Of a DNA stretch of 64,000 nt, positions 26,071 through 43,723 are shown piece after piece (positions within the stretch are counted from its first letter, which is position 1; the number at the start of each line of letters is the position of its first letter). This DNA is from Dehalococcoidia bacterium (lineage in GTDB: Bacteria > Chloroflexota > Dehalococcoidia > Lucifugimonadales > Australimonadaceae): the NCBI GenBank assembly GCA_022820645.1, contig JAJEFD010000003.1, positions 1 through 64,000 of the forward strand. The letters run 5' to 3'. The notes under the pieces were generated by a model. That model was not told the DNA's origin. It did no database searches and saw only the letters and a list, made by a program, of their open reading frames with translations. The translations under genes were made by a program, and so were the position numbers.

Positions 26071-27126
26071 ATGATCGAAGGACTGATAGGCAAGAAGATA
26101 GGGATGACGCACCTCTTTGCATCAGAGGCGCGAGTCATCCCCGTCACCGTGCTCGAAGTCGGGCCCTGTGTCGTCACACAGGTCCGCACCGAGGAGCGCG
26201 ACGGGTACGAAGCCGTCCAGATCGGTTACGGCTCGGTGAAGCAGCTGAGCAGACCCGCAGCCGGGCATCTGGCATCGTCGGGCGCGCGGGTACGGCACCT
26301 GCGCGAGTTCGGCTCAGACGACGTCTCCTCTTACAAGGTGGGCCAGGAGTTGCGAGTCAACCAGTTCCAGGCCGACGACCTCGTCGACGTGGTCTCGACG
26401 ACCAAGGGCCGCGGCTTCCAGGGCGCCATGCGGCGTCACGGCTTCGGCGGCGGACAGAAGACGCACGGTCAAGGCGACCGTGGCCGAGCGGTCGGCTCCA
26501 TCGGCGCGGGGACGTACCCGGGCCGCGTGTTGAAGGGCAAGAAGATGCCCGGCCACATGGGCAACAAGCGCAAGACCGTCCGCAAGCTCAAGGTTGTCGA
26601 GGTGGACGTCGAGCGCAACCTGCTTTTCGTGCGGGGCGCCGTTCCCGGCTCGCGCAACACGACCGTGATGGTGCGCTACGCACACGGGGTCCCCGTAGCG
26701 GAGCGCATCATTCCTGAGGAGCCGGTTGCCGAGATCGAGGAAGAAGTGGTCGAGGAGGCGGTTGCGGAGGTCGCCGAGCCCGAGCAGGAGGCGGTCGCGG
26801 AAGCGGAGGAGCCGGTAGCAGAAGTCGAGGAGACTGCGGCAGAGGAACCGGCAGGGGAAGCCGAAGAAGCTACTGCGGAGGAACCAGCGGCGGAGACGTC
26901 GCAGGAAGAGCCTGCCGCAGAAGTTGAAGAGCCCGCGGCCGAAGCCGACGAGACGCCGAGTGACGAAACGCCGGCGGAGGAAGCATCTTCCGATGAACCT
27001 GCGGCAGAGGAGGAGCCGGTCGACGAAGCACCGGCTGAGGAATCGCCTGCCGACGACGATGCGCCGACCGATGAAGCCGAGGGCGAGGATGCCGAGCAAT
27101 CCGACAAAGAGGAGGAGCGTTCCTGA
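26071..27126 (+). CDS. rplC: 50S ribosomal protein L3 with about 135-aa acidic C-terminal extension
   Basis: [34 protein letters not shown]; tail [25 protein letters not shown]... Confidence 0.97.
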
Positions 27127-27779
27127 TGCAACTTCCTCTGTACGACCTGAGCGCGAACGGCACGGACACGCTGGAAGTCAGCGACGTGGTCTTCGGCGCG
27201 CCTGAGAACCCGGAGCTGCTGCACCAGGCACTGGTGTACCACCGCGCGAACCAGCGGCAGGGCTCCAGCAACACCCTGACGCGCGGACAGGTGAACGGCA
27301 CCGGCCGCAAGCCGTTCTCGCAGAAAGGGACCGGCCGTGCGCGGCAGGGCTCCTGGAAGTCGCCGCACCACCGTGGAGGTGGCGTGGCTTTCGGGCCGAC
27401 GCCCCGCTCGTACCGGCAGCGGATGCCGAAGCAGATGCGCCGGCAGGCGATCCGGACGGCGTTGTCGGGCAAGGTGGCCGCAGAGCGGCTGTTCGTTGTC
27501 GACGGGCTGGACTCGATAGAGCAGAAGACGAAGGCGATGGCGGGAGTGCTGTCTGCCTTCGAGGTGAAAGGCTCAGCGCTCGTGGTGCTGGGAGCGGAAT
27601 CGCAGACCGGAGTCGCGGTGCGGAACATCCCCCGCGTGAAGGCGATCCGCGCCGACCTCGTGAACGTGTTGGACCTGCTCCGTTACGACGCAGTGCTCAT
27701 GAGCCCGGACGCGGCCCGCCGCACGGACGAGATATGGTCGGACACCCGCCGGGTGCGAACGCAGGAGGCGGTGGCCTGA
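27126..27779 (+). CDS. rplD: 50S ribosomal protein L4
   Basis: [35 protein letters not shown]. Confidence 0.97.
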
Positions 27780-28066
27780 TGCATATCTTCCAGGTGTTGA
27801 AGCGTCCGTTGATCACGGAGAAGTCGACCCTGCTGCAGGAGCAGAACAAGTACGTCTTCGAAGTGATGCCGTCTGCGAACAAGGTCCAGGTGCGCGAGGC
27901 GGTGCAACGGGCCTTCGAGGTCAAGGTTACGAACGTGAACATGGTGCACATCGCGGGAGAGAACCGGCGCCTGCGCAATGGGCGGTGGCTTCGGACTCCG
28001 GCGACGAAGAAGGCGATCGTTACCGTCGCTCCGGGCGACACGATCCAGTTGTTCGAGGGAGCGTAG
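27779..28066 (+). CDS. rplW: 50S ribosomal protein L23
   Basis: [24 protein letters not shown]. Confidence 0.96.
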
Positions 28067-28068
28067 CG

Positions 28069-28899
28069 ATGCCGTTGAAGCGATTGAACCCCACCAGCCC
28101 CGGCGTTCGCGCCGCGGTACGCCCCGACTTCTCGGAGGTCACGCGGCGGTCGCCGCACAAGCCGCTGACGAAGGGTCTCCACAAGAGCGGGGGCAGGAAC
28201 GTTCGCGGCAAGATGACCGTCCGGCATCGCGGAGGCGGCGCGAAGCGGGCCTGGCGCGACATCGACTTCAAGCGCAACAAGCCGGGCGTCCCCTGCAAGG
28301 TGGAGTCCATCGAGTACGACCCGAACCGATCCGCGCGCATCGCGCTGCTGCTGTACGCGGACGGAGCGAGGCGCTACATCCTCGCCCCCGGCGGCGTGAA
28401 GGTGGGCGATTCCCTGGTGTCCGGCCCGGACGCAGAGATACGCGTGGGAAACGCGATGCCGCTGCGGAACATCCCGACCGGCACGATGGTGCACAACATC
28501 GAGTTACAGCCCGGCAAGGGCGGCCAGATGTGCCGGGGCGCCGGCACCGGCGCGCAGTTGCTTGCCCGTGATGATGAGACGGCGCTGTTGCGGTTGCCCT
28601 CCGGCCAGATCCGGCGTGTCCCGAGCACGTGTCAGGCCACGATAGGCCAGGTGGGCAATGCGGAGCACAAGAACGCGTCGCTGGGGAAGGCGGGGCGGAA
28701 CCGGCATCTCGGCAAGCGCCCGCACACACGCGGTACCGCGATGAACCCGAGCGATCACCCCCACGGCGGGGGCGAGGGCCGCGCAGGCATCGGGATGACG
28801 CACCCGAAGACCCCATGGGGCAAGCCCGCGCTGGGTCCGAAGACGCGCCGCCGTATGCACACGGACGTGTTCATCGTTCGTGACAGGAGGAAGCGGTAA
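28069..28899 (+). CDS. rplB: 50S ribosomal protein L2
   Basis: [41 protein letters not shown]. Confidence 0.98.
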
Positions 28900-28902
28900 G
28901 TC

Positions 28903-29190
28903 ATGTCGCGCTCAGTGAAGAAGGGGCCGTACGTGCACCCGAAACTCGCGAAGAAGGTCACCCGCGCCCAGAACTCGGGCACGAAGGTGGTCATCACGAC
29001 GTGGTCGCGCGCTTCGACCATCATGCCGGACATGCTTGGCATGACGATCGCGGTGCATGACGGGCGTCGGCACATCCCGGTGTTCATCACGGAGAACATG
29101 GTGGGGCACAAGCTGGGCGAGTTCGCTCCAACCCGGACGTTCCGCGGCCATATCTCCAAGTCAGAACGTCAGTCTTCGGTGAGGCGGTAG
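28903..29190 (+). CDS. rpsS: 30S ribosomal protein S19
   Basis: [32 protein letters not shown]. Confidence 0.98.
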
Positions 29191-29193
29191 GCG

Positions 29194-29532
29194 ATGCCGG
29201 TCAGAGCAACAGGCAGGCAGGTGGGGATATCACCCAAGCGGGTGCGTCCACTGCTGCGCGCGCTGCAGGGGCGGCCCGTGCAGGCCGCGCTCAACGAGTT
29301 GCGGTTCCAACCGGGGCCTACTGCGGAGGAAGTGCTGTCGCTGTTGAAGTCGGCGGCAGCGAATGCCGAGAACAACGAACAGATGGACCCGACGAGGTTG
29401 GTAGTGGTGTCTGCCTATGCGAACCAGGCGGTGAAGATACGCCGGTTCCGCGCACGGTCGCGGGGCCGAGTGAGCCGTATCGCGAGGCAGGCGAGCCACA
29501 TCACGATTGTCGTGGACGAACAGGGAGACTGA
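29194..29532 (+). CDS. rplV: 50S ribosomal protein L22
   Basis: [15 protein letters not shown]; position between S19 and S3. Confidence 0.96.
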
Positions 29533-29536
29533 GCGC

Positions 29537-30430
29537 GTGGGGCACAAGACACATCCCATCGGTTTCCGCCTTGGCGTGATCAAGGGCTGGCAGTCGCGCT
29601 GGTTCGCGGGTACGGGCAAGCAGTACTCCGAGCAGGTCGTGGAGGACTGGCGCATCCGCGAAGTGATCCGTAAGCAGTATGCCGAGGCCGGCATCTCACG
29701 GGTAGAGATCGAGCGGAGCACGCAGGACATCACGATCAACGTGCACACCGCGCGTCCCGGCATCGTTATCGGCCGGGGCGGTCAGCGCGTGGACGAGCTG
29801 CGGAAGCTCGTGGAAGGCGCCGCAGGCGGGAAGCGGGTCCGGCTCAACGTGCTGGAGATACGCCAGCCGGAGCTGGACGCCTATCTCGTTGCGCGGAACG
29901 TGGCGGACCAGTTGGAGCGCCGTGTGATGTACCGCCGCGCGACGCGTCAGGCGGTGATGCGCTCCATGCAGGCCGGGGCCCGCGGGATCAAGGTGATGGT
30001 ATCGGGACGTCTGGGTGGCGCAGAGATCGCCCGGCGCGAGAAGGTGATGGATGGCCGCGTGCCGCTGCACACGCTGCGCGCCGACATCGATTACGGGCTG
30101 GCGGAAGCGAACACGACGATGGGTCGCATCGGCGTGAAGGTGTGGATATACCGAGGCGACGTGCTCAAGGAGCCCGAACGCGCCCAGCCCGCTGCGCCCG
30201 AGGTCCCCGCGGAGATTGTCGCCGCGGCCCAGGAGGCGCTCGCTGCGCAGGCATCGGGCACTGCGACAGCCGTCGTTGAACCTGAGGCAGCGCCGGTCGC
30301 CGTGGAAGAGAGCGAGCCTGAGGCGGTGGAGGAGCAGGTAGTAGAGGAGACTCCCGAGGCGGCCCCGGAAAGCGCCGTCGAGGACGCAGAGAACGAGGGA
30401 GAAGCAGATGCTTCAACCGAAGAGAACTAA
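29537..30430 (+). CDS. rpsC: 30S ribosomal protein S3 with about 80-aa acidic C-terminal extension (GTG start)
   Basis: [35 protein letters not shown]; tail [52 protein letters not shown]. Confidence 0.97.
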
Positions 30431-30833
30431 GTTCCGGAAGCAGCATCGCGGCCGCATGCGCGGCATGGCGGTGCGGGGCAGTTCCGTGCGCTTCGGCGAT
30501 TTCGGCCTGAAGACGCTGGACGCGGGCTGGATAACCGCGCGCCAGATCGAGGCGGGTCGCCGCGCCATCACGCGTCACCTCCGCCGTGGCGGAAAGGTGT
30601 GGATCAGGGTGTTCCCGGCCAAACCCATCACGCGCAAGCCGGCCGAGACCCGGCAGGGCGGCGGCAAGGGCCCGGTGGACGCCTGGGTCGCTCTGGTGAA
30701 GCCGGGGCGCGTGATGTACGAGGTCGGCGGGGTGCCCGCGGAGCTCGCGAAGGAAGCGCTTGCGCGCGCAGCGCAGAAGATGCCGGTGCAAACAAGGATG
30801 GTAAGCAGGGAGGAACCGCTCGTTACCAGCTAG
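30408..30833 (+). CDS. rplP: 50S ribosomal protein L16
   Basis: [19 protein letters not shown]. Confidence 0.98.
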
Positions 30834-30847
30834 CGGTGAGATAGAGC

Positions 30848-31057
30848 ATGAGAGCCAAGATTGAAACGGTACGGGCGCTGTCCGACGAACGCCTCAAAGA
30901 AGAGGAGTTCAGCACACGCCTGGAACTGATGAACCTGCGCTTCAAGGTGGCGACGCGTCAACTCTCGGACCCGTCGGAGTTGCGGGACGCGAAGCGCCGC
31001 CTTGCGCACATCTTGACCGTGGCCCGGGAACGCGAACTCATGGGAGGCGCGCTATGA
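30848..31057 (+). CDS. rpmC: 50S ribosomal protein L29
   Basis: [32 protein letters not shown]. Confidence 0.94.
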
Positions 31058-31842
31058 ACGAAAGAGCTGCCCTCCGCAAGAGCCGCGTTGGCCGCGTGGT
31101 CAGCGACGTGATGGACAAGACGGTGGTAGTTGCCGTGGAGCGCCGCGTGCACCATCCCATCTACCACAAGTCCGTGCGGCACGTGAAGAAGTTCAAGGCG
31201 CACGACGAGCGCAACGAGTTCAAGGTCGGGGACGTGGTCCGCCTGATGGAGACGAGGCCCCTCTCCCGCACCAAGCGCTGGCGCGTTGCGGAACTGCTCC
31301 ACCGGGAAGAAGTCGCACAGGCGCAACAGGTCGAGGTGGCCGCAGAGGTCGAGGAAGAGCTGGAGGCGACAGCGGTTGACGACGCGGCTGCGGAAGTAGA
31401 GGAAGCCGACGCCGGCGATGAGGCCGTTGTCGCCGAAGTAGAGGACGAAGCTGCCGTTGCAGAGACCGAGGAAGCAGAAGCGGACGTCGAAGAAGAGGCT
31501 GCCGTTGCAGAGGTAGAGGAATCGGCTGAGGAGCCTGCCGAGGAAGCGGTAGAAGAGACGGACGTCGAAGAAGAGGTTGCCACTGCAGAGGTAGAGGAAC
31601 CGCAAGAGCAAGCTGCTGAGGAAACGGTAGAAGAGGCGGACGTCGAAGAAGAGGCGGCCGTTGCAGAGGTAGAGGAACCGCAAGAGGAAGCTGCTGAGGA
31701 AACGGCGGAAGAACCGGACGCTGAAGACACGGTCGTGGCTGAGGTTGAAGAACCGGTCGATGAGCCCGCGTCGGATGCAGAAGAGCCGGAGGCCGCCGAA
31801 GAAGCGGATGCTGAGGGGACGAGCGAGGAGAAGACGTCGTGA
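31054..31842 (+). CDS. rpsQ: 30S ribosomal protein S17 with about 170-aa acidic repeat tail
   Basis: [65 protein letters not shown] then Glu/Ala/Val-rich repeats. Confidence 0.96.
31483..31716 (+). repeat. 78-bp (26-aa) tandem repeat within rpsQ, three copies
   Basis: gacgtcgaagaagag at 31483, 31561, 31639; [26 protein letters not shown] / [26 protein letters not shown] / [26 protein letters not shown]. Confidence 0.95.
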
Positions 31843-32207
31843 TCCAGCCGCAGACGCGCTTGAACGTCGCCGACAACTCCGGCGCGAAAGAGATCATGTG
31901 CTTCAACATCCCCGGCGGGACGCGCAGGCGTTACGCCAGGGTCGGCGACATCATCGTGGCATCGGTCAAGCACGCGCAGCCGAACAGCGCCGTGAAGAAG
32001 GGCGAGGTGGTGCGCGCCGTAGTGGTACGGACGAGCGCCGTGACCAAGCGTCCGGATGGCTCCACCATACGATTCGACGACAACGCGGCAGTCATCCTGG
32101 CGCAGTCGGAGATGCCGCGCGGCACGCGCATCTTCGGGCCTGTGGCTCGGGAGCTGCGCGAACGCAACTTCATGCGCATCGTTTCGCTCGCTCCGGAGGT
32201 GCTGTGA
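31839..32207 (+). CDS. rplN: 50S ribosomal protein L14
   Basis: [27 protein letters not shown]. Confidence 0.97.
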
Positions 32208-32527
32208 TGACGGCGCGTTTGCAGCGGGACGACGAGGTGATGGTGATAGCAGGCCGTGACAAGGGCAAGCGCGGCAAGATACAGCGCGTCCTGCCGGACA
32301 ACGGGAAGGTGCTGGTAGACGGCGTGAATATCGTCAAGCGGCATCAGCGCGCCGGCGCAGGCGGCGCCCGGCAGGCGGGCATCATCGACAAGGAGATGCC
32401 CATCCATGCGTCGAAGCTCATGCCGGTCTGTCCTGCGTGCAACCAGCCCACGCGCATCGCTATCAAGATGCTCGAGGACGGCAGGAAGTCGCGCATGTGT
32501 AAGAAATGCGAGGGGATGTTCAGTTGA
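32207..32527 (+). CDS. rplX: 50S ribosomal protein L24
   Basis: DDEVMVIAGRDKGKRGKIQRV; C-terminal CPAC..CKKC. Confidence 0.96.
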   Translation: MTARLQRDDEVMVIAGRDKGKRGKIQRVLPDNGKVLVDGVNIVKRHQRAGAGGARQAGIIDKEMPIHASKLMPVCPACNQPTRIAIKMLEDGRKSRMCKKCEGMFS

Positions 32528-33351
32528 CGACAGACGCTGAAAACAGCGCAGCGGAGCAGGAGCCAGCCGCAGCGGAAGAGAAGCCGAAGCGGGCCACACG
32601 GACGCGCCGGAGCGCAAGCGGAGAGTCCGCGCCGCAGCCTCGCACGCGTCGGCGGACCGCTGCCGCGGCTGCCGAGGAAACAGCGCCTGCTGCTGAGGTT
32701 GCCGTAGCTGAGCCGGAGGCGGAAGCGCCCGCGGCGGGCAGGACCACGCGGAGGCGTTCGACTCCGAAGCGGACGAAGCCGGTTGTCGAACAGCGCCCGC
32801 TGCCCAGGCTCATGGGCCGCTATCGCGAAGAGATCCGTGCGCAACTGATCAACGAGTTCGGCTACTCCAGCGCGATGCAGGCGCCGGAAGTGAAGAAGGT
32901 AGTGCTCAACGTGGGGCTCGGTGAAGGCTTGACGAACACCCGCGCCCTGGAGACGACGCCCGGACACGTGGCGGCGATCACCGGCCAGAAGCCCGTGATC
33001 ACGAAGGCCCGCAGATCGGTCGCGGGCTTCAAGGTGCGGGAAGGGCAGGCCATCGGCGTGATGGTCACGTTGCGTGGCAGGCGGATGTACGAGTTCCTGG
33101 ACCGGATGATCTCGACGGCGCTGCCGCGTATCAGGGACTTCCGCGGCGTTCCGCGGGACTCCTTCGATGGCCGGGGCAACTACGCACTGGGTTTCCGGGA
33201 GCAGATCGTGTTCCCTGAGATCGATTACGGGAGCGTGGACCGCGTCCGGGGGTTCCAGGTGGTCATCACGACGAGTGCGCGCACGGATGCGGAGGGTTTC
33301 CGTCTACTGGAGTTGATGGGGATGCCGTTCGCACGAGTGCAGACGAACTAG
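32506..33351 (+). CDS. rplE: 50S ribosomal protein L5 with about 95-aa N-terminal low-complexity extension
   Basis: Core [36 protein letters not shown]-terminal [29 protein letters not shown]..; alternative TTG start 32524. Confidence 0.95.
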
Positions 33352-33364
33352 GAGGCGGAGGGCC

Positions 33365-33550
33365 TTGGCGAAGAAGAGCAAACTGGCGAAGTGGAAGCGG
33401 GCAGCCCCGTACAAGGTGCGGGCGATGAACCGCTGTAACCGGTGCGGCAGGCCGCGTGCGTACATCCGGTTCGCCGGCCTGTGCCGCGTCTGCTTCCGGC
33501 AGATGGCGCTGACGGGTCAGTTGCCCGGAGTGCGGAAGGCCAGTTGGTAA
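33365..33550 (+). CDS. rpsN: 30S ribosomal protein S14, zinc-binding type (TTG start)
   Basis: [25 protein letters not shown]. Confidence 0.96.
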
Positions 33551-33560
33551 GAGGCGCGCC

Positions 33561-33959
33561 ATGACAATGACCGATCCCATAGCAGACATGCTCACGCGCA
33601 TCAGGAACGCGCTGCTGGTCCGCCACCCTGACGTCGATGTGCCGTCCTCCAAGGTGAAGGTCTCCATCGCGGAGATACTGAAGAGCGAGGGCTACATCTC
33701 CGACTACAGCGTTTCCAAGCAGAAGACGCAGAACTGGCTGCGGCTGCAGTTGCACTACAGAGCGAACCAGGAGCCCGGGATAACCGGACTGAAGCGGGTC
33801 AGCAAGCCGGGCCTGCGTATCCACGTTCAGAAGAAGGACGTGCCGCGCGCCTTCGGTGGCGTCGGCATCTCCATCGTCTCCACGTCGCAGGGGATCATGA
33901 CCGGACGCGATGCGTACCGCCGGGGTATCGGCGGGGAGCTCATGGCGTACGTCTGGTAG
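33561..33959 (+). CDS. rpsH: 30S ribosomal protein S8
   Basis: MTDPIADMLTRIRNALLVRH. Confidence 0.97.
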   Translation: MTMTDPIADMLTRIRNALLVRHPDVDVPSSKVKVSIAEILKSEGYISDYSVSKQKTQNWLRLQLHYRANQEPGITGLKRVSKPGLRIHVQKKDVPRAFGGVGISIVSTSQGIMTGRDAYRRGIGGELMAYVW

Positions 33960-33969
33960 GAGCACGGAA

Positions 33970-34509
33970 GTGTCACGAGTCGGGAAGAAGCCCATACCCA
34001 TACCCAACGGCGTCTCCGTGGAGGTTGCCGATGGGGAGATCGTCGTCAAGGGACAGCGCGGAGAGTTGCGCCAGGCCGTGAACCCGGGCATCTCGGTGCA
34101 GGAAGAGGACGGCGCCCTCGTGGTGCGCCGTGCGTCGGACGACCGTGAACAGCGGGCCTTGCACGGACTGACGCGTGCGCTGCTGGCCAATATGGTCACT
34201 GGCGTGAGTGAAGGTTTCACGCGGACGATGGAGCTGGTGGGCTACCGGGCGCAGGCCCAGGGCGATGCGGTCAACATGCAGCTGGGATTCAGTCATCCCG
34301 TAGTGATCGAGCCCATGGACGGAGTGGTGTTCGAGGTGGAGGGGGTCAACCGTATCCACGTACGGGGGATAGACAAGCAGATCGTGGGGGAACAGGCGGC
34401 GCGCCTTCGGCGTTTGAGGCCCCCGGATGCATACAAGGGCAAGGGAGTGCGGTACATGGGCGAGCAGGTCCGCCTGAAGCCCGGTAAGTCCGCCGCGAAG
34501 AGGTCTTAG
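33970..34509 (+). CDS. rplF: 50S ribosomal protein L6 (GTG start)
   Basis: [32 protein letters not shown]. Confidence 0.97.
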
Positions 34510-34513
34510 CGAG

Positions 34514-34870
34514 ATGGCGAAGATCAAGACGAACCGCGCTGCGCGGGTAGTGAGGCACCTCAGGTTGCGGCGGCACCTGTCGGGCACGACTGCACGCCCG
34601 AGGTTGAACGTGTACCGGAGCGCGCGATTCACGTACGCACAGGTGATAGACGACACCGCTGGTCACACGATAGCGGCGGCGAGTTCGCGCGAACTTCCGA
34701 AGGACGCGTTCGGCAAGACGGATGCGGCCAAAGAGGTGGGTCGCTTGGTCGCCGGCCGTGCGAAGGCGAAGGGCGTTCAGACAGTCGTGTTCGACCGCGG
34801 CGGCTACCAGTACCACGGACGCGTGAAGGCGCTGGCGGACGGCGCACGGGAAGAAGGGCTGGAGTTCTAA
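34514..34870 (+). CDS. rplR: 50S ribosomal protein L18
   Basis: [47 protein letters not shown]. Confidence 0.97.
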
Positions 34871-34873
34871 CCC

Positions 34874-35485
34874 ATGGTAATGACCGAGCGTTCAAGCGAA
34901 GAGCAGAGTGACCTGCAAGAGAAGGTTGTCCACATCCGCAGGGTCGCCAAGGTGGTGAAGGGCGGACGTAACCTCACGTTCAACGCCGTCGTCGTTGTAG
35001 GCGACGGCCAGGGCCAGGTCGGGGTCGGCTTCGGCAAGGGCAAGGCCGTCCCGGATGCCATCCGCAAGGGAGCGACGATCGCGCGGAAAGATATGACCCC
35101 GATCACGCTGAGCGGTTCGACGATCCCGTACTCCGTGACGACGAAGTTCCGTGCGTCCAAGGTGCTGCTGCGGCCTGCACAGCCAGGCGCCGGGATCAAG
35201 GCCGGAGGCGCCGTCCGTGCGGTCATGGAGGCGCTGGGTGTGAAGGACGTCGTCGCGAAGGCGCTTGGGAGCCGGAACCCCATCAACGTCGTGCAGGCCA
35301 CCATCCAGGGGCTTCGCCACATGGAGGCACTTTCCCCCAGCGAGGACGAGCATGCACGGAAAGCAGTCCTCCCTGCTCCGCCTGACCGGCGCACTCCGTT
35401 GCGCCGAGAGGCGAGTTCCCGCCGCGATCGAGACAGGGGCGACCGCGAGCGCCGTGACTCAGCACCGCGCCCGGCCCAGGTTTAG
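34874..35485 (+). CDS. rpsE: 30S ribosomal protein S5 with Arg/Asp-rich C-terminal extension
   Basis: EKVVHIRRVAKVVKGGRNLTFNAVVVVGDGQGQVGVGFGKGK; tail RRDRDRGDRERRDSAPRPAQV. Confidence 0.97.
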   Translation: MVMTERSSEEQSDLQEKVVHIRRVAKVVKGGRNLTFNAVVVVGDGQGQVGVGFGKGKAVPDAIRKGATIARKDMTPITLSGSTIPYSVTTKFRASKVLLRPAQPGAGIKAGGAVRAVMEALGVKDVVAKALGSRNPINVVQATIQGLRHMEALSPSEDEHARKAVLPAPPDRRTPLRREASSRRDRDRGDRERRDSAPRPAQV

Positions 35486-35496
35486 GAGCGTTACCG

Positions 35497-35685
35497 ATGG
35501 CGAAACTGCGTATCAAGTGGGTGCGGAGCGGCATAGGTTACGAACAGAGCCAGCGCCGCACGATCAAGGCGCTGGGGCTACGGCGCCTCCAGCACGAGGT
35601 GGTGCGGGAGGACAGTCCCACGATCCGGGGGATGGTGCACAAGGTGCGTCATCTGGTGTCGGTGAGCGCAGGGGAGGAAGGCTAA
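35497..35685 (+). CDS. rpmD: 50S ribosomal protein L30
   Basis: LRIKWVRSGIGYEQSQRRTIKALGL..GMVHKVRHLV. Confidence 0.95.
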   Translation: MAKLRIKWVRSGIGYEQSQRRTIKALGLRRLQHEVVREDSPTIRGMVHKVRHLVSVSAGEEG

Positions 35686-35688
35686 GCG

Positions 35689-36129
35689 ATGCAGGCGCAC
35701 ACGATCCGGTCTGCTCATGCTCGCCCGAAGCGCAAACGTGTCGGCCGGGGCGACGGCTCCGGCAGGGGCACCTACTCAGGGCGTGGGATGAAGGGACAGA
35801 AAGCCCGCTCCGGCGGCGGCGTCCGCCCCGGCTTCGAGGGCGGTCAGAACCCGCAGATCAAGGGTCTGCCGATGCTGCGCGGCTTCAAGAACCCGTTCCG
35901 CGTGGAGTACCAAGTGGTGAACGTCGGCAGGCTGGCCTCGTTGCCTGATGAGGTGAGCGGTATCACGCCATCGGTGCTGAAGGCGAACGGGATGGTCAGG
36001 CACGCGGACAGGCCGGTGAAGTTGCTGGGCGGCGGCGAGATAGAGCGTGCTTTCACGGTTTCGGGAGTGAAGGTTACGGCGTCCGCCAGGGCCAGGATCG
36101 AGGCGGCTGGCGGCTCAGTGGAGGCGTAA
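35689..36129 (+). CDS. rplO: 50S ribosomal protein L15
   Basis: KRVGRGDGSGRGTYSGRGMKGQKARSGG. Confidence 0.96.
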   Translation: MQAHTIRSAHARPKRKRVGRGDGSGRGTYSGRGMKGQKARSGGGVRPGFEGGQNPQIKGLPMLRGFKNPFRVEYQVVNVGRLASLPDEVSGITPSVLKANGMVRHADRPVKLLGGGEIERAFTVSGVKVTASARARIEAAGGSVEA

Positions 36130-36132
36130 GCG

Positions 36133-37472
<1,340 letters not shown>

Positions 37473-37476
<4 letters not shown>

Positions 37477-38123
37477 GCGCGCGCGTCGTGCTGTTGGGTC
37501 CGCCCGGCGCCGGGAAAGGCACGCAGGCGGCGCTCATCGCCGAAGGCGGGGCCGGCGCGCATATCGCGTCCGGCGACCTGTTCCGCAAGCACCTGGGCGA
37601 AGGCACGGAACTCGGAACGCTCGCGAAGACCTACATGGACAAGGGCGAGTTGGTGCCTGACGACGTCACGATCCGGATGGTGCTCGAGCGCATGGAAGAG
37701 CCGGACGCTCGTGACGGCTACGTACTGGACGGCTTCCCCCGGACGCTGGAGCAGGCAAAGGCGCTGGACGAGGCTCTGGATGGCCAGGGACGCGAGATAG
37801 CGGCAGCGCTGCTGATAGAGGTAGAGACGGAGGAACTGGTGCGCCGGCTGGCCGGACGGTGGATATGCCGGAGTTGCCAGGCGCCGTACCACGAGGCGTT
37901 CTCTCCCCCACAGACTGCGGGGAGCTGTGACTCCTGCGGTGGGGAGTTGTACCAGCGTGACGATGACAAACCGGAGGTGGTGCGGGCGCGGCTGGAGACC
38001 TACGAGCGGCAAACTGCGCCGCTGGTGGGTTACTACGAGTCACAAGGGAAGCTGGCGCGGGTTAACGGCCAGCAGAGCGTGGAACAGGTAACGACAGACC
38101 TGGAGGCGGCCTTTGGCGCATGA
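37473..38123 (+). CDS. adk: Adenylate kinase
   Basis: LLGPPGAGKGTQAALIAE; VLDGFPRTLEQA; lid Cys motif. Confidence 0.96.
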
Positions 38124-38983
38124 GACAGCGCTTTGCGTTGTCTGCGTGCGGCACGTACAATAGGCGTTTGCGGATGATGACACAGACGAAATCGGTGCTG
38201 CGGGACCTGGGCGTCAGGAGCGGGCGCGGCGGCATCACGGTCAAGAGTTCGAAGGAGCTGGACCGGATGCAGGAGGCTGGGCGCGTGACCGGCGAGGTTC
38301 TGCGTGTGCTGCGCGAGTCGATAGCCCCCGGGATGACGACACGGGAGATGGACGCTATCGCGGAGCGCGAGATACGGGCCCGCGGGGCAGTCCCCGCGTT
38401 CAAGGGCTACCGCGGCTTTCCCGCTACGCTGTGCATCTCGCTCAACGAGGAGATCGTCCATGGCATACCCGGCGAGCGCCGCATTCAGGTCGGCGACGTC
38501 GTAGGGATGGACCTCGGGGCGATCGTCGACGGGCTGTACGGCGACTCCGCGGTGACCGTGGCGGTCGGCGACGTGAGCGAGGGCATCCGTGCACAGATGG
38601 AGACGGGGCGTGCGGCGTTGTTCGCAGGCATCGCACAGGCACGCGCGGGCAACCGCGTTGGCGACGTCTCCCACGCCGTGGAGCAGGAGATCCTGCGGCG
38701 CGGTCAGTATGGCATCGTCAGGGAGTACGTTGGGCATGGCATCGGCACCCAGTTGCACGAAGAGCCGTCCGTTCCCAACTTCGGCCCCGGTGGGCATGGG
38801 CCGCTGCTGCGTCCGGGGATGGCCATCGCCATCGAGCCGATGGTGAACTTCGGAGGCGACGGTACGACCGTGCTGGACGACGACTGGACAGTGGTTACCG
38901 TGGACGGATCGGTATCCGTCCACTACGAGCATACGGTGATCATCACCGAGGGTGCTCCCATCATTACTACGAAGGTGGACTAG
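38120..38983 (+). CDS. map: Methionine aminopeptidase type I
   Basis: FKGYRGFPATLCISLNEEIVHGIPGERRIQVGDVVGMDLGAIVDGLYGDSAVT; start may be 38174. Confidence 0.95.
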   Translation: MRQRFALSACGTYNRRLRMMTQTKSVLRDLGVRSGRGGITVKSSKELDRMQEAGRVTGEVLRVLRESIAPGMTTREMDAIAEREIRARGAVPAFKGYRGFPATLCISLNEEIVHGIPGERRIQVGDVVGMDLGAIVDGLYGDSAVTVAVGDVSEGIRAQMETGRAALFAGIAQARAGNRVGDVSHAVEQEILRRGQYGIVREYVGHGIGTQLHEEPSVPNFGPGGHGPLLRPGMAIAIEPMVNFGGDGTTVLDDDWTVVTVDGSVSVHYEHTVIITEGAPIITTKVD

Positions 38984-39005
38984 CAGGGAGAAGACGTAAG
39001 CCCAT

Positions 39006-39224
39006 ATGGCAAAGAAAGAGTCCATAGAGGTCGAGGCCACGGTGATGGAGGCTCTGCCGAACGCAACCTTCCGGGCGGAGCTTGCGAACGGGCATGAGGT
39101 GCTGGCACACGTGTCAGGCAAGATGCGGATGCACTTCATCCGCGTTCTTCCCGGGGACCGCGTGCTGGTGGAACTGTCACCGTACGACCTTACCCGTGGA
39201 CGGATCACCTACCGGTTCAAGTAG
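39006..39224 (+). CDS. infA: Translation initiation factor IF-1
   Basis: [39 protein letters not shown]. Confidence 0.97.
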
Positions 39225-39240
39225 AAGGAGCAGGGACGAC

Positions 39241-39354
39241 GTGAAGGTATCAGCATCGGTCAAACCGCGGTGTGACAAGTGCCGTCAGATACGGCGTGGC
39301 CGCACGCTGCGGATCATCTGCTCCAATCCACGGCACAACCAGAAGCAGGGGTGA
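39241..39354 (+). CDS. rpmJ: 50S ribosomal protein L36 (GTG start)
   Basis: [37 protein letters not shown]. Confidence 0.96.
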
Positions 39355-39358
39355 GGCT

Positions 39359-39739
39359 ATGGCACGCGTAGCAGGGGTAGACATACCGGACAACAAGCGT
39401 GTGGAGATAGCGCTCAGGCGCATCCATGGCATCGGGCCGACGGCTGCAATGCGCATCGCGTCGCAGGCGGGTATCGCCGGTAACCCGAAGGTCCGTGAGG
39501 TGCCGGACGACCAGATGGCCCGCATCAGGGAGATCATCGACCACGAGTACACCGTGGAAGGTGACCTCAAGCGGGAAGTGAGCGACAACATCCGCCGGTT
39601 GCAGGACATCGGCGCTTACCGGGGGCTGCGGCACCGCCGCGGTCTGCCGGTGCACGGTCAGCGGACGAAGACGAACGCACGCACAAAGCGGAGCGGCCGC
39701 AGGACGGTCGCCGGCAAGCGGCGTGTGATGAAGAAGTAG
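39359..39739 (+). CDS. rpsM: 30S ribosomal protein S13
   Basis: [26 protein letters not shown]. Confidence 0.97.
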
Positions 39740-39757
39740 GACGGGCGGAGGATCATC

Positions 39758-40150
39758 TTGGCCAGGGCCAACAGAACAAGGACACGGCGCAGGGAGCGGA
39801 AGTTCGTTCCACGCGGCAAGGTGTTCATCACGGCGACGTTCAACAACACGATAGTTTCGCTCACCGACCCGGAAGGCAACGTTGTGGCCTGGGGATCCGG
39901 CGGCGGCGTTGGATTCAAGGGAACGCGGAAGAGCACAGCCTTCGCGGCACAGCGCGTTTCCGAGACTGCTGCGCGCAAGGCCATGGAGTTCGGTCTGCGT
40001 CAGGTCGAAGTGTACGTACGAGGTCCCGGCGCCGGGCGCGAATCAGCGATCCGCGCACTGCAGGGTGCAGGTCTGACCGTCACAAGCATCCGCGACGTTA
40101 CGCCGGTTCCGCATAACGGCTGCCGTCCTCCGAAACGGCGGCGGGTCTAA
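39758..40150 (+). CDS. rpsK: 30S ribosomal protein S11 (TTG start)
   Basis: [39 protein letters not shown]. Confidence 0.97.
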
Positions 40151-40159
40151 GAGGCAAAG

Positions 40160-40786
40160 ATGGCAAGATACACAGGCCCCGTGTGCCGGCAATGCCGGCG
40201 CGCAGGAGAGAAACTGTTCCTGAAGGGTGAGCGCTGCTTCACTCCCAAGTGCGGGGTAGAGAAACGTCGCAAGACACCCGGCGACCAGCAGCCGCGCCGC
40301 CGCCGTGCGTCGGACTGGGCGATACAACTGCGCGAAAAGCAGAAGGCACGCCAGTCTTACGGCGTGCTGGAGCGCCAGTTCCGCCGCTACTTCGGCGACG
40401 CGCTCCGGATGCAGGGTGCGACAGGTGAGAACCTGATGCAACTGCTGGAGCGCCGGCTGGATAACGTGATCTACCGCATCGGCTTTGCCGACTCCCGGGC
40501 GCAAGCCCGGCAGCGCGTGCTGCACGGACACTTCACCGTGAACGGTCGGAAGGTGAACATCCCCTCCTACCGTGTCCGACCGGGCGAGATGATCGCCTGG
40601 AAGCAGTCCAGTAAGGACGCCCAGTTCGGGCAGGACGCGGTCCGCTCGGTCGGTCAGCGGCCGCTGCCGGAGTGGATCGAGTTCGACCGGAGCGAGATGA
40701 CCGCGATGATCACGCGGAACCCGGAACCGGCGGATATAGACAGCAAGATCGAAACCCGAATGGTCGTGGAGTTCTACTCGCGCTAA
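40160..40786 (+). CDS. rpsD: 30S ribosomal protein S4
   Basis: MARYTGPVCRQCRRAGEKLFLKGERC; QLLERRLDNVIYRIGFADSRAQARQ. Confidence 0.97.
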   Translation: MARYTGPVCRQCRRAGEKLFLKGERCFTPKCGVEKRRKTPGDQQPRRRRASDWAIQLREKQKARQSYGVLERQFRRYFGDALRMQGATGENLMQLLERRLDNVIYRIGFADSRAQARQRVLHGHFTVNGRKVNIPSYRVRPGEMIAWKQSSKDAQFGQDAVRSVGQRPLPEWIEFDRSEMTAMITRNPEPADIDSKIETRMVVEFYSR

Positions 40787-40839
40787 CGGGCTGGCTTGGT
40801 TCGCCCGGCTCCTCCGAGGAGGACCGGGGTGCATGAAGG

Positions 40840-41901
40840 ATGGGACAAGAGATGTTGGACTACGGCTACGACGAGCCTCGCGACTCCAGTTTCGACCTCG
40901 CGCCTGTGCCCAAACCCACGGTGAGGATGACGGAATCCGGTGAGAACTACGGGATGTTCGTCATCGAGCCGCTGCCGCGCGGGTTCGGCGTCACGTTGGG
41001 GAACCCCCTGCGGCGCGTGCTGTTGAGCTCGATCAACGGCTCGGCTATCAGCTCCGTCAAGATCGAGGGTGTTGAACACGAATACTCTACCGTCCCCTAT
41101 GTGAAGGAGGACGTGGTAGACATCCTGCTCAACGTCAAGTCCATCAACCTGCGCGCACACACCAGCAGACCCGGCAAGCTCCGCCTGCGCGTCGAGGGAC
41201 CCGGTGAAGTGAAAGCGGGGGACATCATCATGTCTCCGGACTTCGAGATCGTGAACCCTGAGTTCCACATCGCTACGCTGGACGGCCCGAACTCGAAGCT
41301 CGAGATGGACCTGAACGTGGAGACGGGCAAAGGCTACGAACCGGCGGCATCAGGCGACGGACGCCCCATCGGGGAGTTGCCCGTCGACGCCATCTACACC
41401 CCGGTGCGCAAGGTGAACTACACGGTGGAGCGCACCCGCGTCGGGCAACACACGGACTACGAGCGGCTGAACGTCGAAGTCTGGACGAACGGAGCAGTCT
41501 CTCCCGCCGAGGCGATGCGCCAGGCGGGGCAGGAGCTGGTCGAGCACTTCTTCCGTTTCTCCACCGTATCGGAGTCGCAGTCGCAGGACGGCGACCGGAT
41601 GATGTGGGCGGCGGCGATTCCCTCCTCGCAGTACAACATGCCGGTTGAGAACCTGAACCTCACCATGCGGACACTCAACTGCCTGAAGCGCGCCGCGATC
41701 CACAAGGTGGGCGAGGTGCTGGAGAGGGACCGCGACGAGTTGCTGCGCATCCGGAACTTCGGCGAGAAGTCGCTCGATGAACTGGACGAGCGCCTGCGTG
41801 AGATAGGCATCACCCACCCCGGCTTGTGGACGCAGGAGAGCACGCCAGACCCGCTCCCCGTAGCCGCCGCCTCAGAGCAGGCGACAGAGGAGGAGGAGTA
41901 G
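40840..41901 (+). CDS. rpoA: RNA polymerase subunit alpha
   Basis: GFGVTLGNPLRRVLLSSINGSAISSVKIEGV; C-terminal LNCLKRAAIHKVGE. Confidence 0.97.
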   Translation: MGQEMLDYGYDEPRDSSFDLAPVPKPTVRMTESGENYGMFVIEPLPRGFGVTLGNPLRRVLLSSINGSAISSVKIEGVEHEYSTVPYVKEDVVDILLNVKSINLRAHTSRPGKLRLRVEGPGEVKAGDIIMSPDFEIVNPEFHIATLDGPNSKLEMDLNVETGKGYEPAASGDGRPIGELPVDAIYTPVRKVNYTVERTRVGQHTDYERLNVEVWTNGAVSPAEAMRQAGQELVEHFFRFSTVSESQSQDGDRMMWAAAIPSSQYNMPVENLNLTMRTLNCLKRAAIHKVGEVLERDRDELLRIRNFGEKSLDELDERLREIGITHPGLWTQESTPDPLPVAAASEQATEEEE

Positions 41902-41904
41902 GCG

Positions 41905-42255
41905 ATGCGACATCGAGTAGCAGGCCGCAAGCTGGGCCGTCGCAGCGAACACCGCGAGGCGTTGATGAACAACCTCGTCTCGCAGTTGCTGCGCCACGAG
42001 CGCGTAACCACGACCGAAGCCAAGGCCCGCGAGGTTCGCGCCCTGGCCGAAAAGGTGATCAGCAAAGGGAGAGACGCTACGCTGCACAACCGGCGCCAGG
42101 CGCTCTCGGTGGTGCCGGACAAGCACGCCGTCGAGCGGCTGTTCAATGAGATAGGCCCGCGGTACGCGGACCGGCCCGGCGGGTACACACGGATGGTAAA
42201 GCTCATGCCGCGCAAGGGCGACGCCGCCCCGATGGCGTTGCTGGAGTTGGTGTAG
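41905..42255 (+). CDS. rplQ: 50S ribosomal protein L17
   Basis: MRHRVAGRKLGRRSEHREALMNNLVSQLLRHERVTTTEAKAREVR. Confidence 0.97.
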   Translation: MRHRVAGRKLGRRSEHREALMNNLVSQLLRHERVTTTEAKAREVRALAEKVISKGRDATLHNRRQALSVVPDKHAVERLFNEIGPRYADRPGGYTRMVKLMPRKGDAAPMALLELV

Positions 42256-42264
42256 AGGAGGACC

Positions 42265-43068
42265 GTGACGAGACGGATCGCGCTCGTCATCGAATACGAT
42301 GGGACGGGGTACGCCGGTTTCCAACGCCAGGCGAACGCCCCTTCGATACAGGAGGAACTCGAAAACGCAATAGAGTCGCTCACGACGGTCAGGGCCACGG
42401 TTCGAGGCGCAGGTCGCACCGACGCCGGAGTCCACGCCTTGGCACAGGTGGGGGTATTCGATACACAGAGTACGCTGCCCACCGAACGTGTGGTGGCCGG
42501 GCTGAACCATTACCTGGGGGAGCAGATAGCGGTACGTGCGGCGTACGACGTTCCCCTGTCGTTCGACCCCAGAAGGCATGCCAGGGCGAGGGTGTACCGC
42601 TACCGGATGCTGGAAGGAGGCACACCGTCTCCGTTGCGCAGGGGCGTTACATACCGGGCCCCGCGCCGACTGGATACCGAGGCGATGAGCCTGGCAGCAG
42701 CAAGCCTGGTCGGGGAGCACGATTTCCGAGCCTTCAGTGGGCCGCAACCCGCAGGCAAGTCTTTCGTCAGGCGGATGACGCGGGCAACGGTGTTCCGGCA
42801 TGGCGATGAGGTGGTCGTGGAATTGGAGGCGAATGCCTTTCTCCCGCAGCAGGTGCGGCGGACGACAGGAGCACTGGTGGACGTGGGGCTTGGCAGGCTG
42901 ACAGTGAGCGCGTTCGAGCAGATGATCGAGAGCGGAGCGCAGGGCGCGGCGGAGACGGTTCTCCCCGCGCGTGGCCTGACACTACAGGAAGTGAGATACG
43001 CGGGATTCCCGCCTGAGAACGATGCAACTACAACGCACGACGAAACATACGAAACCGGCAGCCCGTAA
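42265..43068 (+). CDS. truA: tRNA pseudouridine(38-40) synthase
   Basis: IEYDGTGYAGFQRQ; VRGAGRTDAGVHALAQVG. Confidence 0.95.
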   Translation: MTRRIALVIEYDGTGYAGFQRQANAPSIQEELENAIESLTTVRATVRGAGRTDAGVHALAQVGVFDTQSTLPTERVVAGLNHYLGEQIAVRAAYDVPLSFDPRRHARARVYRYRMLEGGTPSPLRRGVTYRAPRRLDTEAMSLAAASLVGEHDFRAFSGPQPAGKSFVRRMTRATVFRHGDEVVVELEANAFLPQQVRRTTGALVDVGLGRLTVSAFEQMIESGAQGAAETVLPARGLTLQEVRYAGFPPENDATTTHDETYETGSP

Positions 43069-43723
43069 GGAGAAGTGGCACGTGGTGGACGCGGAAGGCG
43101 AGCGGCTGGGCCGCCTCGCCACGAAGGTCGCCGGTCTGCTGCAGGGCAAGCACCGCCCTGACTACAGCCGCCATCAGTTGTCGGACGACTTCGTTATCGT
43201 GGTCAATGCCGCGAAGGTCGGGGTCTCCGGCAACAAGATGTCCCAGAAGCTCTACTACCGTCACTCCGGCTACCTCGGTGGCATGCGCACGCGCACGCTG
43301 GAAGAGATGCTGACGCGTTTCCCCGAGCGGGTAATCGAACTCGCGGTGAAGGGGATGCTGCCCCGGAACCGGCTTGGCCGCCGGATGCTCCGGCGGCTGA
43401 AGGTCTACACAGCCGCGACGCACCCGCACGAGGCACAGGTCCGCATAGGCATGGGCAAGGCGAAGCAGGCCCCTGCCGCCCCTGCGCCGGCACCGGCGCG
43501 CCGCAGGCGCCGCACCGTGCGCGAGGAGACGGCGGCAGAGGAAGAGGCTCCTCAGGCCGTTGTCGAGGCAGAAGCGGCTGAAGAGGCCACCCCGTCCGGG
43601 GAAGAGCCCGAAACAGCCGTCGTCGAGGCTGAGGAGACCGCCGCAGACGAGTCGTCGGAAGGCGAACCCGAGACGGAAGAAGCCGCTGAAGGCGAACAGG
43701 AAGAGGAAAGCGAGACCAAATGA
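43022..43723 (+). CDS. rplM: 50S ribosomal protein L13 with about 85-aa acidic C-terminal extension
   Basis: WHVVDAEGERLGRLATKVAGLLQGKHRPDYSRH; tail VREETAAEEEAPQAVVEAEAAEEATPSGEEPE... Confidence 0.96.
   Translation: MQLQRTTKHTKPAARKEKWHVVDAEGERLGRLATKVAGLLQGKHRPDYSRHQLSDDFVIVVNAAKVGVSGNKMSQKLYYRHSGYLGGMRTRTLEEMLTRFPERVIELAVKGMLPRNRLGRRMLRRLKVYTAATHPHEAQVRIGMGKAKQAPAAPAPAPARRRRRTVREETAAEEEAPQAVVEAEAAEEATPSGEEPETAVVEAEETAADESSEGEPETEEAAEGEQEEESETK

What the first reader, a model, noticed from the sequence alone, without database searches (positions are those of the whole stretch)
26071..43723. System-level pattern: at least five ribosomal proteins independently carry long acidic low-complexity extensions
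Seen: L3, S3, S17, L13 (C-terminal) and L5 (N-terminal) have Glu/Ala-rich tails while their cores are ordinary basic r-proteins, so simple proteome-wide halophilic acidity is not the explanation. Inference: shared selection for a polyanionic ribosome surface (assembly chaperoning, anti-aggregation, nucleoid exclusion or crowding control). I do not recall this being described as a coordinated trait.
Basis: partly seen in the sequence, partly recalled or inferred. Interest (0 to 1): 0.8.

Follow-up and report, generated by a model that had tools for sequence, protein, structure and literature searches.

The report
Acidic disordered tails on bacterial ribosomes
In one group of uncultured Chloroflexota bacteria, eight ribosomal proteins and the largest RNA-polymerase subunit end in long, floppy, strongly acidic tails, and natural selection keeps the acidity rather than the exact sequence, so the outside of the gene-expression machinery seems to be coated with negative charge for a reason still unknown.

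Summary
L3, S3, S17 and L13 carry 70-175 aa acidic C-terminal tails. L5's N-terminal extension is real but mixed-charge (19 K/R, 15 D/E), so it does not belong with them. The rest of the genome adds acidic tails on S2, S18, L9, L25 and RpoC. In a 1.23 Mb sample (45% of the genome), 8 of 36 called ribosomal proteins carry such a tail against 3 of 933 other proteins, one of them RpoC (p about 2e-10). There is clade signal: S17 and L9 tails run through most of the order, L3 and S18 tails are almost confined to one family, and other Dehalococcoidia carry tails on L4 or RpoA. Selection acts on charge: tail dN/dS is 0.17-0.27, Glu-to-Lys changes are almost absent while Ala-to-Thr changes of the same mutation type are common, and D+E content does not follow genome GC although the neutral filler does. 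Proteome-wide halophilic acidity and unconstrained repeat expansion are rejected. I favour a bulk polyanionic brush over cis-chaperoning, because tailed cores are not more basic and carriers change between relatives, but function is untested. Bacterial r-protein extensions are known; a concerted, selected acidic version is a new variant.

The parts
26692..27123 (+). Acidic C-terminal tail of ribosomal protein L3 (144 aa, net -58)
   Evidence: L3 tails of 50-182 aa in most of the family; its end carries the Shine-Dalgarno of L4
30218..30427 (+). Acidic C-terminal tail of ribosomal protein S3 (70 aa, net -21)
   Evidence: the S3 end overlaps the start of L16
31315..31839 (+). Acidic C-terminal tail of ribosomal protein S17 (175 aa, net -77), twice the length of the core
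   Evidence: AlphaFold core pLDDT about 95, tail about 41-55
31481..31727 (+). 78-bp tandem repeat (3.2 copies, 85% matches) inside the S17 tail
   Evidence: Tandem Repeats Finder
43460..43720 (+). C-terminal tail of ribosomal protein L13 (87 aa, net -20; begins with an Arg-rich stretch, then acidic)
32506..32799 (+). N-terminal extension of ribosomal protein L5 (98 aa, 19 K/R, 15 D/E): mixed charge, not acidic
   Evidence: extension of varying length found through most of the order
35384..35482 (+). C-terminal extension of ribosomal protein S5 (33 aa, net +5), mixed charge, not part of the acidic set
41875..41898 (+). Short acidic end of RpoA (EQATEEEE); long acidic RpoA tails occur in relatives

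Best explanation
The tails are a clade trait of this Dehalococcoidia lineage: disordered polyanionic appendages on proteins of both ribosomal subunits and on the RNA-polymerase beta-prime subunit, kept by selection on bulk negative charge and not on sequence. Most likely mechanism: together they form a loose acidic brush on the surface of the assembled ribosome (and polymerase), which weakens non-specific contacts with other nucleic acids, ribosomes and basic proteins. Shown here: the tails, their specificity, their clade distribution, their predicted disorder (S17) and purifying selection for acidity. Inferred: that they stay on the mature ribosome, point outward, and work as a brush.
For: Specificity: 8 of 36 called r-proteins versus 3 of 933 others, the three being RpoC, a histidine kinase and a repetitive protein without a Pfam domain. 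Selection: tail dN/dS 0.17-0.27 against core 0.04-0.05; single-nucleotide E/K differences 0, 0, 0 and 1 in four genome pairs, against A/T differences (same mutation type) 18, 8, 11 and 4; Fisher p = 3e-7, 0.002, 0.0002 and 0.17. D+E fraction of the tails is independent of genome GC (rho 0.11, p 0.65) while A/G/P rises (rho 0.74) and S/T/N/I/K falls (rho -0.69). Bulk and position-insensitive: carriers change between relatives (L3 and S18 in family f1, L4 and RpoA in other families). Both subunits are involved, tails totalling net -256 against +520 for the r-protein cores. Tailed cores are not more basic than untailed ones (0.065 vs 0.105 per residue, p 0.28), and RpoC is tailed too, which speaks against neutralising individual basic proteins. 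Disorder: S17 tail at low pLDDT.
Against: rRNA already gives a ribosome thousands of negative charges (-4000e is used in PMC12858079), so -256 adds little total charge; a brush would have to act locally or sterically. Some sister genera have mixed or Lys/Arg-rich tails on L13 (net +11, +12) and S3 (G006), and L5 and S5 extensions are mixed, so tails in this clade are not always acidic. Whether the tails remain on mature ribosomes, or where they point, was not tested.
Confidence: 0.4

Rival explanations
1. Cis-acting chaperone or nucleic-acid mimic: each acidic tail transiently covers the RNA-binding face of its own protein until rRNA displaces it, as the acidic C-terminal tip of Hfq does for its RNA-binding ring.
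For: Precedent: the Hfq acidic tip binds the basic core, competes with non-specific RNA binding and prevents DNA aggregation (PMC5606850). S17, L3, L13, S3 and S18 cores are basic (+11 to +18).
Against: Tails do not sit preferentially on basic cores (p 0.28); S2, L9 and L25 cores are near neutral (-1, +1, +1); RpoC is tailed too; the S17 tail charge (-77) far exceeds its core charge (+11).
Confidence: 0.27
2. Tolerated expansion: repeat slippage lengthens C-termini that happen to be surface-exposed, and selection only removes positive charge because a basic tail would stick to rRNA. The tails have no positive function.
For: Tail sequence is repetitive (78-bp array in S17) and lengths change fast (L3 88-182 aa within the genus); L13 and S3 tails become basic in sister genera. 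R-protein extensions are common in bacteria and not specific to sub-groups (PMC9534751).
Against: Only 3 of 933 other proteins have such tails, though many have free C-termini. Charge is kept across genomes of 42-70% GC. S17, L9 and family-wide L3 and S18 tails have persisted through long divergence.
Confidence: 0.23
3. Specific docking: the tails are binding sites for a partner such as a basic chaperone, a hibernation factor or a membrane or nucleoid anchor.
For: Acidic extensions can recruit basic partners in principle; nothing here points to a particular partner (no supporting call).
Against: No conserved motif was seen inside the tails; the conserved ends (EEKTS of S17, EEERS of L3) coincide with the Shine-Dalgarno and start of the next gene; carriers change between relatives.
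Confidence: 0.1

Closest known systems
Ribosomal protein extensions of Mycoplasma pneumoniae (PMC9534751)
   Same: Many r-proteins of one species (11 of 52) carry N- or C-terminal extensions, mostly predicted disordered; disrupting them affects fitness. The 287-aa L3 chain 7ood_b aligns with window L3 to residue 266, some way into the tail
   Different: Described there as common through bacteria and not specific to any sub-group; charge is not the theme in the passages read. Here the extensions are acidic and their set follows a clade
Actinobacterial r-protein tails (here Corynebacterium macginleyi and a Micromonospora record; S3 chains 7kgb_c and 32nj_C, mycobacterial by my own knowledge)
   Same: Glu/Ala-rich C-terminal extension on L17 (net -16 and -7), weaker or mixed ones on S2, S3 or S16; 274-275-aa S3 chains align into the S3 tail
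   Different: No acidic tail on L3, S17, L9, S18 or L13 in the copies examined, and far less charge
Acidic C-terminal tip of Hfq (PMC5606850)
   Same: Disordered acidic C-terminus on an RNA-binding protein
   Different: Works in cis on one basic ring protein; here tails occur on many ribosomal proteins, several with near-neutral cores
Acidic proteome of halophilic archaea (own knowledge)
   Same: Acidic surfaces on ribosomal proteins
   Different: There acidity is proteome-wide; here the rest of the proteome is ordinary (median net -0.029 per residue) and acidity is confined to appended tails

Membership tests
Bacterial ribosomal protein extensions (sense of PMC9534751) | N- or C-terminal extension of more than 20 aa relative to the E. 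coli protein | tested here: met
   Same yardstick: L3 144, S17 175, L13 87, S3 70, S18 108, L9 56, S2 42 aa beyond the E. coli end
Bacterial ribosomal protein extensions (sense of PMC9534751) | Extension mostly disordered | tested here: met
   AlphaFold of S17: core about 95, tail about 41-55; only S17 was folded
Bacterial ribosomal protein extensions (sense of PMC9534751) | Present on the mature ribosome | not testable with these tools
   Needs ribosome mass spectrometry or cryo-EM
Hfq-type cis-acting acidic tail | Tail sits on a protein whose core is basic and binds nucleic acid | tested here: not met
   S2, L9 and L25 cores are near neutral and tailed cores are no more basic than untailed ones (p 0.28)
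Hfq-type cis-acting acidic tail | Tail contacts its own core and competes with RNA | not testable with these tools
   Needs binding experiments
Halophilic acidic proteome | Acidity spread over the whole proteome | tested here: not met
   Sample median net charge -0.029 per residue; acidic tails in 3 of 933 non-ribosomal proteins

The most novel reading that the evidence does not exclude
The total negative charge hung on the outside of the ribosome and RNA polymerase is itself a selected quantity: it is kept while the proteins that carry it change, so this is a physical coat of the gene-expression machinery evolved at the level of the whole particle. Suggestive only: in the four same-genus genomes with an uninterrupted S17 tail the summed tail charge is -203, -227, -233 and -242, while L3 ranges from -23 to -59 and L13 from -12 to -44.
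Probability: 0.3. Interest if true: 0.78.

Novelty: new variant of a known kind. Interest (0 to 1): 0.58.

Why it matters
Ribosome surfaces are usually treated as nearly universal. A lineage that repeatedly adds acidic disordered tails to ribosomal proteins and to RNA polymerase, and defends the charge against mutation, would show that surface charge of the translation machinery is an evolvable trait. Positively charged proteins bind E. [quoted passage not shown] The set of relatives with and without each tail gives natural comparisons.

Tried and rejected
Proteome-wide halophilic acidity: rejected. GC-driven codon drift: rejected, because D+E does not follow GC while the filler does. DNA-level simple repeat or Shine-Dalgarno-like function of GAG runs: not supported; Glu is coded by GAG and GAA and Ala by four codons, and SD-like motifs are fewer than expected in S17 (28 against 38 with the tail's own codons shuffled, p_low 0.024) and not depleted in L3. 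Conserved tail ends as a protein motif: they coincide with translation signals of the next gene. L3 tails elsewhere in the phylum: 19 long L3 frames outside the class were examined and none had an acidic L3 tail; the extra length lay upstream. Solved structures: no chain covers the S17 tail; only a mycoplasma L3 and 274-275-aa S3 chains align part-way into a tail, and tail-only searches found nothing.

Full report
What was checked. The window holds a standard ribosomal protein gene order (S12, S7, EF-G, S10, L3 ... L13, S9). Measured against E. coli K-12 protein ends, L3, S17, S3 and L13 have C-terminal extensions of 144, 175, 70 and 87 aa with net charge -58, -77, -21 and -20. L5 has a real 98-aa N-terminal extension, but it contains 19 K/R and 15 D/E, so it is mixed and not acidic.

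Rest of the genome. A search of the genome with off-operon E. coli r-proteins and inspection of the loci found acidic C-terminal tails on S2, S18, L9 and L25, and none on L20, L35, L19, L21, L27, S15, S16, S20, L11 or L33. Scanning called genes in 1.23 Mb of stretches (45% of the genome), 11 of 969 closed genes had a tail at the threshold used: S17, L3, L13, L9, S3, S18, S2, L25, RpoC, a histidine kinase and a repetitive protein without a Pfam domain. That is 8 of 36 called r-proteins against 3 of 933 others, p = 2.5e-10. The sample was not random: it was chosen to include the r-protein loci, which is why r-proteins are well covered; the 933 others serve as background. The gene caller missed some small untailed r-proteins, so the r-protein fraction is nearer 8 of about 49; the contrast remains. 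NusA has a long acidic segment before its end.

Charge budget. For 47 r-proteins of this genome the cores sum to +520 and the long tails to -256 over 837 aa; the same E. coli set sums to +488. The 837 aa include S5's basic 33-aa extension (+5) and the whole 122-aa L25 stretch beyond the E. coli end, most of which is the TL5 domain.

Clade signal. In the own genome and 35 relatives of the order, S17 has an acidic tail in most (absent in G030 and G032, weak in a few). The L3 tail is long and acidic in family f1 apart from a 7-aa end in G011, and outside f1 only in G037. S18 is acidic-tailed in all f1 members seen, and outside f1 only in G023 and G026 among those read. L9 acidic ends occur through most of the order. 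The RpoC tail is strongest in f1 (net -34 to -59 in most). S17 tails of G004 and G005 are interrupted by N in the assemblies, so their values are too low. Nineteen long L3 frames elsewhere in the phylum had no acidic L3 tail, though L4 was acidic-tailed in G308 (net -29). The class-wide S17 search gives open-frame lengths only, not charge, and one of its longest frames (G176) turned out to be long upstream of the core.

Selection. In same-genus codon alignments, tails have dN/dS 0.17-0.27 against 0.04-0.05 for cores. Single-nucleotide E/K differences number 0, 0, 0 and 1, while A/T differences, the same first-position change between G and A, number 18, 8, 11 and 4 (Fisher tests). These pairs share genomes and are not independent. 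Tail alignments are gappy, so dN/dS is approximate. Across genomes of 42-70% GC the D+E fraction is flat and the neutral filler follows GC.

Mechanism. Tailed cores are not more basic than untailed ones, RpoC carries a tail, and the tailed protein changes between relatives; this favours a bulk property over cis-protection of each protein. Against a purely electrostatic reading, rRNA charge is far larger. The S17 tail is predicted disordered. Whether the tails are kept on mature ribosomes is the key unknown.

Literature. PMC9534751 reports extensions on 11 of 52 M. pneumoniae r-proteins and calls such extensions common across bacteria and not specific to any sub-group. PMC5606850 describes the Hfq acidic tip. 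PMC5726854 shows ribosome binding of positively charged proteins. PMC12858079 models ribosome and DNA charge. Nine searches of the held open-access library found no description of a concerted acidic tail set; subscription papers were not searched.

Noticed in passing
L137:1556-5881 (RpoC, own genome): RNA polymerase beta-prime ends in a 74-aa D/E tail; long acidic RpoC ends recur in the family (net -34 to -59 in most).
   Followed up: yes
L132:16763-18337 (NusA, own genome): NusA has an approximately 90-residue acidic segment before its C-terminus.
   Followed up: partly
L067, L071, L066 (G008, G012, G006): In sister genera L13 tails are Lys/Arg-rich (net +11, +12) and the S3 tail of G006 has a Lys/Ala-rich part, so tail charge can switch sign.
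   Followed up: partly
L064 and L065 (G004, G005), S17 gene: The S17 tail is interrupted by N in both assemblies, so its true length there is unknown.
   Followed up: no
L054 record (Micromonospora sp. HM5-17, NZ_RJWA01000017.1): The genome reached from this record returned two sets of S3, L3, L2 and S17, one matching Corynebacterium in length and S3 end; this looks like contamination of the record.
   Followed up: partly
window about 17192, and many places in the sampled genome: REP-like palindromes TCCCGCN2-6GCGGGA give 82 hits over both strands in 1.23 Mb; a similar element seems to be read in frame (VVPAEAGIQ) in the linker of a 2-oxoacid dehydrogenase acyltransferase (L231:2443-4560).
   Followed up: partly
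L356 (G176), S17 locus: The very long S17 open frame (479 aa) comes from about 351 residues upstream of the S17 core, not from a C-terminal tail.
   Followed up: partly
L342 (G308) and L355 (G329): L4 carries an acidic C-terminal tail (net -29 and -15) in Chloroflexota outside this class.
   Followed up: no
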